From: Pedobacter planticolens
Lineage (GTDB): Bacteria; Bacteroidota; Bacteroidia; Sphingobacteriales; Sphingobacteriaceae
Direction: 5' to 3'
DNA: 64,000 bases
Assembly: GCF_014172375.1 (NCBI RefSeq)
Contig: NZ_WNXD01000001.1
Span: forward strand, 1,860,001-1,924,000
Shown here: piece by piece, positions 15,843 through 58,510 of the stretch
Numbering within the stretch: position 1 is the stretch's first letter
Layout of the letters: each line of letters starts with the position of its first letter
The notes under the pieces: generated by a model
What the model was told of the DNA's origin: nothing
Seen by the model: the letters and a program-made list of their open reading frames with translations, nothing else
The model's database searches: none
Translations under genes and position numbers: made by a program

Positions 15843-15930
15843 CTCGTCATTCCCAACTCGATTGGGAATCGTAATGCAATAAGAGGCTTTTTTACGCATT
15901 ACGATTCCCGTTTTCACGGGAATGACGAGC
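15843..15930. repeat. CGTCATTCCC mirror element
   Basis: Two imperfect hairpins (CATTCCCAACTCGATTGGGAAT and ATTCCCGTTTTCACGGGAAT) placed head to head around ATGCAATAAGAGGC..GCAT. The ends are CTCGTCATTCCC and GGGAATGACGAG. Related copies lie at 15962-16049, 28715-28833, 32473-32509, 32704-32740 and 58425-58510. Confidence 0.8.
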
Positions 15931-15961
15931 AGGAATCAAAGCTACCTACCTCAACTCAATG

Positions 15962-16049
15962 CATCATTCCTAACATGATTGGAAACCCTAATACAATAAG
16001 AGGCTTTTTTTTACGCTTTACGATTCCCGTTTTCACGGGAATGACGAGC
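15962..16049. repeat. CGTCATTCCC mirror element, diverged copy
   Basis: The right half is nearly identical to the copy ending at 15930, including AATAAGAGGC and the hairpin TTCCCGTTTTCACGGGAA. The left half has decayed (CATCATTCCTAACATGATTGGAAA). Confidence 0.75.
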
Positions 16050-16589
16050 AAAAATCAAAGCTGATAACCCAACTCCTACTAGGGTAGGGGATACGATTTT
16101 CACATCAAAAACAAGGCTTAAAAACAGCTCATTTCTCCTTACAATTTCACTCCTAAAAACGGATAGAAAAGTAATCCATTCCCTCTCTTATTTACCTCCT
16201 AAATCTGGAGTGTAAAAGAGGTGTAAAAGCATCTATAAAACCCTTGATATTTACCTTATTTCCTTCACAAAATCGTGTTATTCTATTTCGTTTTAACTAA
16301 CAAAAATGCATACATCTTTAAAAAGTAGCAGAAAATTTTTGCTTTAAAATCAACATAAATAGTGTATCTTAACATCAACAAATTACGGAGATAGCACATA
16401 AGATGAAAATCTCCGTTTAACGCTCTTAATCACTTAATTTTTACATAAATAGTAGTTAATAGTGTTAATTATATAAAACACATAATAAATTAAAAATCAA
16501 TACATTAAAATATTTAACATAAAGTAATAAATAATTTAAAGTAAGGATTTAAAAAATTATAAAACTAACAATTTTAGCATCATCCTTAA

Positions 16590-31681: not shown

Positions 31682-32135
31682 AGTCCTTCTTCTCGGTACA
31701 AGATTAAAGATGAAATCTGTAGAGATGTTGAAGTATGCTAAAATGTGTCGTCATGCTGCTTATCTAAGCATCTTTTAAAGGTCTTCGACAAGTTAATTTT
31801 CTAGGGCGTAAGGTATGCAAAGCAAATCACCTTAATGTAAATGAAAGGATTTGACCAGTATTGATAGTAAATGAGACTTTTGAGACTAATTGAGACTTTT
31901 TTGATAGTATTTATTGGATGCCTAATTACATTATTTTCTTCATAAAGCGCCATAACAGGTTTTAAAAGGCTTTTTTCTAATTTATATTTTCATTTTGCAT
32001 GACAAAAAAAGAACATTTCCCGACAGGAAAAGGGTATTTCTTATCGTATTATGTCAATCATTTACTCTACTTGAGACATTTCTTATCATATTATGGTTAA
32101 AATATGGCGTATTATATCAACCATTTAACAGACAA

Positions 32136-33658: not shown

Positions 33659-36600
33659 TTATTGTTGTCTAATCAAAGTGATAAATCCTTTTTGTTTTAA
33701 TTTGTCAGTACCAAAATCTATGACGAAATAATAGGTTCCTTCGGCTAAAGCATTACCATTATAGGTTCCATCCCAAGTATTGCTATAACCTTTTTTGGTG
33801 TACAGGATTTTGCCAGAAGCATTAAATATGGTTACCATATTGTTGGGGTACATATCAATGTTTTTAACCACCCAAAAATCATTTATCCCATCACCATTTG
33901 GTGTTAAAAGATTAGGCGTTGTTATGGCTTGGAAATCGTTTCTAACTTCTACACTAAAACTTTGCGATTGACTACAATTACTTGCATTGCTTGCAGTAAC
34001 CATATATATAGTACTTTCTGTTGGTCTTACAGTAAGGACCGCAGAATTTTGACCAGAGATAATCCCATTTGCATTGCTCCAAGTATAGATAGTACCTCCA
34101 CTGGCAGTTAACACTAAAGTTTCGCCTTTACTAATGCTATTACCATTGCTACTACTGATGCTCACTTGTGGAAGTGCATTAATAGTTAATGTTCCATTGA
34201 CGTATGTAAATGTATAATTTGTAGCTAATCCGCCCGTTGGCGTTAATACATAATTGCCACTTGGCGAATTACTCGTTGCAGTTGTACTTATAGTTGGTTT
34301 AGTACTTAAGCTATTTGCATTATCGGTGTTTTTAAAGCCTGCATAGGTTAGACTAAAAGTAGGCAAGCCGCTACTTTGGCAAATTTGTTTGTTATCTGCA
34401 GTAACAGTTAATGCAGCTTTGCTAATGCTTAAATTAGCAGCATTGTAGGTTATCGTGTAATTCGCACCTGCAGATAATGTATTTTGATTAATTGTATAAT
34501 TCCCTGCATTCTCACCTACTGTTCTACTTAAACTTCCTGTAATTACATCTGCACCAACTAATCCTGTTGAAACGTAGGTTAAAGTTGGATCCGCATCGCC
34601 GTACACCTTGTTTTTGGCAGCAGCGCTGATGGTCAACACTTTGTTGATGATAGTTAAATTAGCAGCATTGTAAGTTATCGTATAATTCGCACCAGCGGAT
34701 AAAGAACCTTGATTAATACTGTAATTCCCTACATTCTCACCTGCTGTTCTACTTAAATTTCCTGTAATTACATCTGTTCCTACTAATCCTGTTGAGGTAA
34801 AGGTTAAAGTTGGATCGACATCGCCGTATACTTTGTTTTTGGCAGCAGCAGTTATGGTCAGTATTTTGTTGGTGATAGTTAAATTAGCAGCGTTATAAGT
34901 TATCGTATAATTCGCACCTGCGGATAATGTATTTTGATTAATTACATAATTACCTACATTCTCACCTGTTGATCTACTTAAACTTCCTGTGGTAGCATCT
35001 GCACCAACTAATCCTGTTGAGGTAAAGGTTAAAGTTGGATCGACATCGCCGTATGCTTTGTTTTTGGCAGTAGCCGTAATAGTTAATGCTTTTGGAGTAA
35101 TGGTTAAAGATTGTTGTACACTACTATTTTCATAATTAGAATTACCCGTTTGATTAGCCGTGATTAATGTGCTTCCTGCTTTAAGAATATGAGCCGTATT
35201 CCCTGTAATCGCAACAACTGTTGGATCAATTGCAGTATAAGTAATTGTTAACCCTGCCGATGATTGCGTAGCACCAAGTGTAAAATCTGCATCACCATAG
35301 GTTTTGGCAGCAATTGTACCAAAAACAATAGACTGGCTACCTTTTGCCACAGTTATACTAAAATTAGCCGTAGCTGTATTAAAACAAGTTTGATCTGTAG
35401 CCTTAATGCTGAAATTATATACACCAGCAGTAGTTGGTGTACCCGATAACACACCATTTGTTGCAAGCGTAATACCAGGAGGAAGTACATCTGTACTACT
35501 GTAGAGATATGTACCACTTGCACCAGTAGCCGTAATGGTTTGTTGATAATTAATAGCAACAGTTGCAGCACTTAATGTTGCTCCTGAAAGTGCAACAGCA
35601 CTAGGTTCTGTTAGGGTGAACGTTTTTGTGGTTTGGCATAAATTGGCATCTTTTATCGTTACCGTATATGTACCTGCACTTAATCCACTTGCTATTGCTC
35701 CTGTTCCGCCAGACGGTGCCCAAGAATAAGTATATGATCCAGTCCCGCCAGATGGGGTTACGGTTGCCGTTCCATTCGTACCTCCATTACAAGTTACATT
35801 TGTTTGTGAAGTAGTTGCCATAATGGCATTTGGTTCGGTTATGGTAACGCTTTTTGTAATCAGGCATAGATTAGCATCTTTTATGGTTACCGTATATGTC
35901 CCCGCAGCTAGTCCAGTTGCAGTAGCTACAGTTCCACCAGATGGAGCCCATGAATAGGTATAAGCTCCAGTTCCACCAGATGGGTTTGCCGTTGCCGAAC
36001 CATTAGTACCACCATTGCAAGTTACATCAGTTTGTGAAGTAGTTGCTGTAATAGCACTTGGCTGTGTTATAGTAAAATTCTTAACTATAGAACATCCATT
36101 ACTAGAAGTTATTGTTACACTATAATTTCCAGCACTTAAGCCTGTAGCTGTAGCGGCATTACCACCAGATGGAGACCAAACATAGGTAAAAGGCCCAGGA
36201 GCCCCAGATGGAACAACAGTTGCAGTACCTGTATTCGAACCATTACACAAAACATTTGTTTGCGACTGGGTAGCGGTTAATGTATTTGTACTAGTTATTG
36301 TGAAATTTTTGGTCAGTATGCATCCATTGGCATCAGTAACAGTTACTGAATAATTACCTGCTGTAAGCCCAGTTGCTAAAGAAGCACTACCACCAGATGG
36401 TAACCAAGAATAAGTATACGAACCTGATCCGCCAGTAACAGTAACAGATGCTTGCCCAAACGATAAACAAGTTGCATTGATCTGGCTGGTTGTAGCGGTT
36501 AAAACTGCCGGTTGATTAATTGTGAAATTTTTAGTAGTTATACATCCTTTGGCGTCGGTAATAAGTACCGAATAATTCCCTACAGTTAGCCCAGTTGCTG

Positions 36601-56985: not shown

Positions 56986-57594
56986 TTATAAGATAAAGCT
57001 TTTAAGTATATCGCTGTATATACGTTCATTTGCACTTCCAGCGGCTATAACCCGAAATTCATATTCTAATCCGCTAGTTAATGGTTGTAACAGCACTGCG
57101 CTTTTTGTTGAGAGAAAGTTAGTCCATGCTTCAGTACCTACCACACGATACTCATATTGATACATCCCAGCACCTTTAATTTTAGTCAATTTTACAGTAG
57201 CCATACCCTTTTCCATAGATTTTGCACTAAAACCAGTAGGTTTTGGTAAAATTCCAACCGGATTAACTGCTTTTGATAAACTAAAACCAGAGCTTAATAA
57301 AATTACTTCATTGTCATTACCATAAATCAATACATAATGAAATAATTTAATTAAAAGCGCTTCTAATTGTTCTCGTGCTTCGTTTTTCACTGCTATCTCT
57401 GATTTTCCACCATTTTCTGCATCACTTAATGCAGCGGTATAATCATTGTCTGCTGCCGTAATTTCGCCTAAAGACGGCACAGGTGTTGCAAAATATGCAT
57501 TCGCAGTCATGCTATTAATAATAAATTTGGCTTTGTTACTTAATTCTGTATCACTGTAACGGGAAAAGCTGGTTACAATTTTTGGTTTAGACAT
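56986..57594 (-). CDS. fibronectin type III-like domain protein
   Basis: A 202-residue protein without a signal peptide, from ATG at 57594 (preceded by seven A; another ATG at 57615 adds seven residues). Residues 1-110 are helical (FSRYSDTELSNKAKFIINSM, DYTAALSDAENGGKSEIAVKNEAREQLEALLIKLFHYV), and residues about 115-202 form an FN3-like domain (KGAGMYQYEYRVVGTEAWTNF, LTSGLEYEFRVIAAGSANERIYSDI). This arrangement recurs in Bacteroidota genomes with no known role. Its promoter region contains the 21-bp repeat array. Confidence 0.8.
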   Translation of the reverse strand: MSKPKIVTSFSRYSDTELSNKAKFIINSMTANAYFATPVPSLGEITAADNDYTAALSDAENGGKSEIAVKNEAREQLEALLIKLFHYVLIYGNDNEVILLSSGFSLSKAVNPVGILPKPTGFSAKSMEKGMATVKLTKIKGAGMYQYEYRVVGTEAWTNFLSTKSAVLLQPLTSGLEYEFRVIAAGSANERIYSDILKSFIL

Positions 57595-57727
57595 TTTTTT
57601 ATGTGTTAATACCATAGCGATCTTATGTTGTATCTCTAATTCATTTTAATAAGATAAGAGCTATACAAGCTATGGTTGGGTTTTTAAAAGATAGATTATT
57701 TAGTATTTATCAGCTTTAGCTATCCAA

Positions 57728-57992
57728 TTTGTTCATAAGCATTTTGCTTTTGTTCATAAGCATTTTGTTTTTGTTCATGAACATTTTGCTTTTGTTCATG
57801 AACATTTCCTTTTTGTTCATAAACATTTTGCCTTTGTTCATGAACATTTCTCTTTTGTTCATAAACATTTTGCTTTTGTTCATGAACATTTCTCTTTTGT
57901 TCATAAGCATTTTGCTTTTGTTCATGAACATTTCTCTTTTGTTCATAAACATTTTGCTTTTGTTCATGAACATTTCTCTTTTGTTCATGAAC
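57728..57992. repeat. 21-bp tandem array, 13 units
   Basis: Units start GTTCATRARC at 57731, 57752 and every 21 bases to 57983. Seven of 13 carry the perfect palindrome GTTCATGAAC; the others read GTTCATAAGC or GTTCATAAAC. Spacer words are ATTTTGCTTTT or ATTTCTCTTTT, and the second half alternates as a 42-bp unit. The array is 134 bases upstream of the FN3-like gene. Both strands are open because 21 is a multiple of three; this is not taken as coding. Confidence 0.9.
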
Positions 57993-58424
57993 AATAAGCT
58001 GTTATGATCTTAAATTGGTAGGATTAAAAAAGCTAACATTGTATATGCGCTTTAAAACTAAGGGGGTAAACCTGCTTTTTGCTCAGGCAAGAGAACAACT
58101 ATAAATAATAGGTTCTTTTTAAGATTAAATTGGGCATCACTTACTTTTAACTCCATAGTTTTTGTTTTTTGCTTTACAGCAAGGTTTAATACAATACTAG
58201 AGGGATGATAAAAAGCAAGTGTTTATTGTTACTACAATTAATACCTTCTTTCTATTTCGAAAGTAAGTATTAAAATGAGTAAAACAAATTATTTATTTTG
58301 CAAGACATTAACTATCAGTTAATTAAGTTTACTTTAAAGAAATAAAGCGGGAGCAAATAGCAATAGACAAGGTTTTTTTAAAGTGTTAATTTTTGTTAAT
58401 GTTGCTTTTGGTTCTGTGCATGTC

Positions 58425-58510
58425 CGTCATTCCCGTGAAAACGGGAATCGTAAAGCGGTAAAAAGGCTTGCTAGCATTAAGATCCCCAATCAAGTTGGGA
58501 ATGACGAGCG
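58425..58510. repeat. CGTCATTCCC mirror element
   Basis: CGTCATTCCCGTGAAAACGG through a centre GTAAAGCGGTAAAAAGGCTTGC to CAAGTTGGGAATGACGAGC. Family described at 15843-15930. Confidence 0.8.

What the first reader, a model, noticed from the sequence alone, without database searches (positions are those of the whole stretch)
57728..57992. Thirteen-unit 21-bp array around the palindrome GTTCATGAAC
Units are exactly 21 bases apart, two helical turns, so palindromes face the same side of DNA. Seven of 13 are perfect palindromes; a 42-bp alternation shows growth by doubling. It sits upstream of an FN3-like gene. It may be a multi-site binding array for a regulator, partition or chromosome-organising protein, or a phase-variable spacer.
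Basis: seen in the sequence. Interest (0 to 1): 0.6.

Follow-up and report, generated by a model that had tools for sequence, protein, structure and literature searches.

The report
Two-turn DNA arrays beside FN3 genes
A small FN3-domain protein gene of unknown function, found across the Bacteroidota phylum, almost always has just upstream an array of short DNA repeats spaced exactly two turns of the double helix; the letters of the repeat change completely from locus to locus but the spacing does not, which points to an undescribed gene-plus-DNA-array unit.

Summary
What is conserved is the architecture. Of 67 FN3-like homologues, 60 have 21 as the strongest repeat period in the 600 bp upstream (59 with z>3, against 33 of 897 random genes; Fisher 4e-61). 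Four have 22 and two have 20. Two families outside this class show it too. Unit sequences are unrelated between loci. In the closest species the array sits in the same slot between conserved flanks, but its unit has drifted to 12 of 21 identical bases. Period 22 forms one protein clade (99/99). The arrays are not coding, carry excess dyad symmetry (p 5e-6) and show no compensatory pairing. Gene-less arrays also occur; the one tested is absent in the sister species. Best explanation: a helically phased array of dyad sites for a cooperatively binding protein, inherited with the FN3-like gene. It works like iterons or plasmid centromeres but belongs to neither. Binder and function are unproven. 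I found no description in the open library.

The parts
57728..57993 (-). Array of 13 units, 21 bp each (two helical turns), 42-bp alternation, palindrome core GTTCATGAAC or its one- or two-base variants; upstream of the FN3-like gene
   Evidence: period conserved upstream of homologues
56986..57594 (-). FN3-like gene, 202 aa (likely start ATG at 57594 by alignment; an in-frame ATG lies at 57615): N-terminal three-helix domain of unknown family, C-terminal FN3 domain
   Evidence: Pfam fn3 reaches 8 of 14 family members, not the window member itself; the N-terminal half has no known relative
57595..57727 (-). Non-coding gap between gene and array, conserved about 80% with P. boryungensis; contains an inverted repeat (ACCATAGC...GCTATGGT, about 57611-57677)
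58011..58150 (+). Non-coding flank on the other side of the array, also found beside two gene-less arrays with the same unit (L037, L038; 71-78%)
58055..58408 (.). Non-coding stretch conserved at 80% in the syntenic P. boryungensis locus, showing that the array slot lies between two conserved flanks

Best explanation
[quoted passage not shown] It belongs with the FN3-like gene beside it as one inherited unit across the Bacteroidota. SHOWN: conserved place upstream of the gene; period held at 20-22 bp while the sequence turns over; not coding; excess dyad symmetry without compensatory pairing; period co-inherited with the protein clade; gene-less arrays elsewhere in the genome that carry the units of gene-linked ones. 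INFERRED: that a protein reads the array; that it is a dimer; that the FN3-like protein, or a factor that comes with it, is that protein (I give this about one in three); that the outcome is control of the FN3-like gene (autoregulation) or a DNA-organising complex.
For: Lag 21 is the strongest period upstream of 60 of 67 homologues; 59 of 67 against 33 of 897 random genes with z>3, Fisher 4e-61; second detector 56 of 67 against 14 of 897; two families outside the class have it too. Four loci with 22 bp are one protein clade, 99/99, 0 of 500 shuffles, in genomes that also carry 21-bp paralogues. Nine gene-linked arrays have stops in every frame and periods 20 and 22 exist, so not coding. Reverse-complement self-match 0.53 against mirror control 0.47, 43 of 54 arrays, p 5e-6; 34% against 15% with perfect 5-bp arms. 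No covariation across the dyad, z -0.3, which fits double-stranded recognition better than hairpins. Arrays stay in phase over 10-20 units even when units are only about 40-60% identical. Same slot, same period, changed letters in the sister species.
Against: No binding, expression or footprint data. The N-terminal domain has no recognisable DNA-binding relative. Gene-less 21-bp arrays occur in a Pedobacter genome without any detectable family member, so the array is not strictly tied to this protein. Homogenisation of units could pass the period on without selection. No classic Bacteroidota promoter was found between array and gene (0 of 54). If a protein reads these arrays, its sequence specificity must change from locus to locus or be weak.
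Confidence: 0.5

Rival explanations
1. Passive or selfish minisatellite: the locus carries an array that grows and homogenises by slippage and unequal exchange. Unit length is inherited passively, and copies with or without the gene spread as segmental or MITE-like duplicates.
For: Unit letters drift in concert between species. Gene-less copies share 140-280 bp of flank with gene-linked loci. A gene-less array is absent at the orthologous uvrA-fabV site. Arrays occur without the gene in G071.
Against: Periods confined to 20-22 bp over a phylum, strict phase in strongly diverged arrays, specific place upstream of one gene family, and kept at four orthologous gene-linked loci are not expected of a neutral repeat.
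Confidence: 0.22
2. The array acts as RNA or single-stranded DNA: a transcribed leader with hairpins every 21 nt that controls the FN3-like mRNA or makes a small RNA.
For: Palindromic units; inverted repeats also lie between array and gene, with apparently compensatory changes in Sphingobacterium; a gene-less copy ends in a terminator-like hairpin (L089).
Against: No covariation across the dyad within arrays; a fixed two-turn period is not needed for RNA hairpins; no Rfam match at gathering score in the window and only sub-threshold chance-like matches at other loci.
Confidence: 0.13
3. Phase-variable spacer: copy number changes by slippage and tunes the promoter of the FN3-like gene.
For: Nearly identical units and 42-bp blocks make slippage easy; array lengths differ between loci.
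Against: The array ends a median of 216 bp from the ATG and no promoter was recognised; strongly diverged arrays such as L056 cannot slip easily yet keep the period. Strain data are lacking.
Confidence: 0.07
4. Coding sequence for a heptapeptide-repeat protein or leader peptide.
For: 21 is a multiple of 3 and many arrays, the window's included, are open in some frame.
Against: Stops in every frame of nine gene-linked arrays, no consistent purifying pN/pS, related loci with 20 or 22 bp.
Confidence: 0.03
5. Statically curved DNA: any unit repeated in phase with the helix adds up to a bend, and the bend is the function.
For: Predicted bend exceeds whole-sequence shuffles for many arrays (median p 0.065).
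Against: Bend is not above column-permuted arrays that keep the period (median p 0.59), and G+C-rich arrays without A-tracts show little bend. The wedge parameters were recalled from memory.
Confidence: 0.05

Closest known systems
F-plasmid centromere parS_F (sopC), bound by ParB
   Same: About a dozen head-to-tail repeats carrying inverted-repeat sites (twelve 43-bp repeats with ten 16-bp inverted repeats; PMC6238139) next to the gene of a small protein; period close to a whole number of helical turns.
   Different: There the site sequence is fixed and read by a helix-turn-helix ParB with a ParA partner. Here the sequence is free, the period is two turns, the gene encodes a helical + FN3 protein, there are up to eight or more loci per genome, and they are chromosomal.
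Plasmid replication iterons (RepE, TrfA and similar; from general knowledge)
   Same: Direct repeats of about 17-22 bp at two-turn spacing near the gene of the binding protein; cooperative same-face binding.
   Different: No Rep protein and no A+T-rich origin block identified; not on a plasmid; unit sequence not conserved among homologues; 10-20 units.
Par and toxin-antitoxin multi-operators read by ribbon-helix-helix proteins (ParR/parC, omega; from general knowledge)
   Same: Short symmetric sites repeated in helical register upstream of the gene of a small protein, with autoregulation as a likely outcome.
   Different: No ribbon-helix-helix match for this family by Pfam, PDB sequence or fold.
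REP/BIME and MITE-like intergenic repeats
   Same: Dispersed palindromic intergenic repeats with gene-linked and gene-less copies.
   Different: Head-to-tail arrays of fixed two-turn period with locus-specific sequence; the partner gene is not a transposase.

Membership tests
Plasmid iterons | Direct repeats of about 17-22 bp in helical register | tested here: met
   21 bp x 13; 20-22 bp in relatives
Plasmid iterons | Adjacent replication initiator gene | tested here: not met
   Neighbours are an FN3-like gene and ordinary chromosomal genes
Plasmid iterons | Located on a plasmid or replication origin | tested here: not met
   On a 2.1-Mb contig with synteny to another species; no plasmid match for array or protein
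Par centromere (ParABS or ParMR) | Array of symmetric sites for a partition protein | tested here: inconclusive
   Dyad-symmetric units are present; binding unknown
Par centromere (ParABS or ParMR) | Adjacent ParA/ParB or ParM/ParR genes | tested here: not met
   No such Pfam match among the neighbours scanned
CRISPR array | Repeats separated by unique spacers | tested here: not met
   Units are contiguous at 21 bp with no room for spacers
Phase-variable tandem repeat locus | Copy number differs between strains and changes expression | not testable with these tools
   One genome per species is held
Heptapeptide-repeat coding sequence | An open frame under purifying selection; period divisible by 3 | tested here: not met
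FN3 domain proteins (C-terminal half of the neighbour) | FN3 beta-sandwich fold | tested here: met
   AlphaFold2 model and PDB fold hits E 4e-6; Pfam fn3 in 8 of 14 family members

The most novel reading that the evidence does not exclude
A phylum-wide, undescribed two-part genetic system: each FN3-like protein (or a factor travelling with it) assembles on its own helically phased array, reading spacing and dyad symmetry rather than a fixed word. Gene-less arrays elsewhere in the chromosome are its further docking sites, so that each paralogue organises its own set of loci.
Probability: 0.3. Interest if true: 0.88.

Novelty: new variant of a known kind. Interest (0 to 1): 0.72.

Why it matters
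A non-coding element whose spacing is conserved across a phylum while its letters are free is invisible to ordinary sequence searches, and it marks a gene family of unknown function present in up to eight or more copies per genome. If a protein reads the array by phase and symmetry, this would be an unusual mode of DNA recognition, with a ready natural series (20, 21 and 22 bp, the last in one protein clade) for testing it.

Tried and rejected
Coding heptapeptide reading: looked convincing by eye in some arrays (L173, L180, L188), rejected by stops in all frames elsewhere, by pN/pS and by periods of 20 and 22. Static curvature: rejected as the selected property. Hairpin covariation: a first test with the best-pairing axis gave z 5.8 but was biased by that choice; with the axis chosen from column frequencies it vanished (z -0.3). 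A dinucleotide shuffle of single 21-mers was uninformative as a dyad null because of ties; replaced by genomic 21-mers and a mirror control. Ribbon-helix-helix guess for the N-terminus (basic amphipathic KxKIKLSL-like strand, mean net charge +2.6 in the first 14 aa): no support from Pfam, PDB sequences or folds; left as an idea. Mobile carriers: the protein was not found in viral contigs, plasmids or phages. Classic promoter TTG-N17-23-TANNTTTG between array and gene: 0 of 54. The idea that arrays depend on the gene in trans is contradicted by G071. A small-RNA reading of the right flank was weakened because its terminator-like hairpin is not kept in relatives (by eye). Literature searches found no description.

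Full report
WHAT IS THERE. The window is C1:1860001-1924000 of a 4.06-Mb Pedobacter genome (own genome G000; the closest named relative found, P. boryungensis, is G016). At 57728-57993 lie 13 units with starts exactly 21 bp apart; seven are perfect GTTCATGAAC, three GTTCATAAAC and three GTTCATAAGC, with a 42-bp alternation. The neighbouring gene on the minus strand (56986-57594) encodes 202 aa: a three-helix N-terminal domain and a C-terminal FN3 fold. The genome holds 36 GTTCATGAAC sites, 31 of them in four arrays.

THE WORD IS NOT WHAT IS CONSERVED. The FN3-like gene has four paralogues in this genome, and each has its own array of period 21 or 42 just upstream, with unrelated units. In P. 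boryungensis the syntenic locus keeps both flanks at 80% identity and has an array in the same slot, but the unit is AATGCTGGTAAGCAATGGCTC against AATGTTCATGAACAAAAGCAA here, 12 of 21 identical, the other differences mostly transitions (unit comparison by eye). So the units of one locus evolve together and drift between species.

THE ARCHITECTURE IS CONSERVED. Homologues of the protein were taken from named genomes (Pedobacter, Sphingobacterium, Flavobacterium, Chitinophagaceae) and from 395 genomes of the class. There, 98 genomes match at E 1e-5; 50 of them, by my count of the table, below 1e-18. Weaker matches are often the FN3 domain alone. Of 67 loci with enough upstream sequence, 60 have 21 as the strongest base lag, four 22, two 20 and one none. 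59 of 67, against 33 of 897 upstream regions of random genes, pass lag 21 with z above 3 (Fisher p 4e-61). A second detector gives arrays in 56 of 67 against 14 of 897. The 67 include paralogues and a few close relatives, so they are not fully independent. Downstream regions mostly lack the signal. Three loci in two families outside the class (L219, L220, L231) also have 21-bp arrays. Units differ completely from locus to locus.

NOT CODING. Nine gene-linked arrays have stop codons in every frame of both strands, no open frame shows consistent purifying pN/pS, and related loci use 20 or 22 bp. The period is two helical turns, not seven codons.

PERIOD FOLLOWS THE PROTEIN. On a maximum-likelihood tree of the 67 proteins the four loci with 22-bp arrays form one clade (99/99; all bootstrap trees; 0 of 500 shuffles), although their units are unrelated and the same genomes (G213, G322) carry 21-bp paralogues. 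This ties array and gene into one inherited unit. By itself it does not prove that the protein reads the array, because linkage plus homogenisation of units would also pass the length on.

SYMMETRY. Arrays resemble their reverse complement more than a mirror control (0.53 against 0.47, 43 of 54, p 5e-6), and unit consensuses have perfect 5-bp inverted arms in 34% of cases against 15% of random 21-mers (several arrays of the GTTCATGAAC family are in that set). Sixteen of 54 arrays alternate in two-unit steps, some with units in opposite orientation (L033, L205). There is no compensatory change across the dyad (z -0.3), which speaks for a dimeric reader of double-stranded DNA rather than for hairpins. 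Predicted static bend is not selected beyond what the phase gives.

GENE-LESS ARRAYS. In 464 kb sampled from the genome all long non-coding tandem arrays have period 21 or 42, roughly one per 77 kb. Most are not next to an FN3-like gene. Several share units or whole flanks with gene-linked arrays. At the one site compared (uvrA-fabV), P. boryungensis lacks the gene-less array, while all four orthologous gene-linked pairs compared have arrays in both species. G071, a Pedobacter with no detectable family member, still has 21-bp arrays; samples of G019, G064 and G008 have none, although the single FN3-like gene of G008 does have one (L047). So gene-less arrays do not strictly need the gene.

MECHANISM. 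The best-supported reading is a helically phased row of dyad sites for a cooperatively binding protein, upstream of the FN3-like gene (array end to ATG median 216 bp). It would work like the F-plasmid centromere, twelve 43-bp repeats with ten 16-bp inverted repeats (PMC6238139), or like iterons, without being a member of either: no Par or Rep genes, no plasmid match. Whether the FN3-like protein is the binder is open; its N-terminal domain has no recognisable DNA-binding relative.

NOVELTY. Six literature searches of an open-access library found no description; subscription papers and preprints are not covered. As a phased multi-site array it is a variant of a known kind. The coupling of a sequence-free, period-fixed array to an uncharacterised FN3-like protein over a phylum is, as far as I could check, new.

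LIMITS. All evidence is computational. Array borders are set by autocorrelation thresholds and are uncertain by about a unit. Genome densities come from samples. Taxon names of most genomes are hidden. No strain-level comparison was possible. The contrast between kept gene-linked arrays and lost gene-less arrays rests on one gene-less site.

Noticed in passing
window 31992-32120: A weak 21-bp periodic stretch whose letters (CATTTCCCGACAGGAAAAGGG) resemble another array family of this genome, the one beside paralogue L035.
   Followed up: no
window 58425-58505 and 15847-16062: A dispersed repeat of about 85 bp (TCATTCCCGTGAAAACGGGAATC...GGGAATGACGAGC) with several copies near the loci compared in this genome and in P. 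boryungensis; REP/MITE-like.
   Followed up: no
window 34429-36075: Large tandem repeats of 225-228 bp, a multiple of three in one case and so probably repeated protein domains.
   Followed up: no
L061, L062, L063 (Sphingobacterium), about 150-270 bp before the gene: A long inverted repeat (GGGGTAAAATTGTCCC...GGGACAATTTTACCCC) between array and FN3-like gene; the arms change together in L063.
   Followed up: partly
L155:12206-12959 (Pedobacter G071): A 21-bp array of about 29 units between ordinary genes in a genome with no detectable FN3-like family member.
   Followed up: partly
L083:5868-6639 against L251:1248-1388: The uvrA-fabV intergenic region is about 770 bp with a 21-bp array in this genome and about 140 bp without one in P. 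boryungensis.
   Followed up: yes
L075:17541-18102: A 63-bp repeat, nearly nine copies, inside an open reading frame.
   Followed up: no
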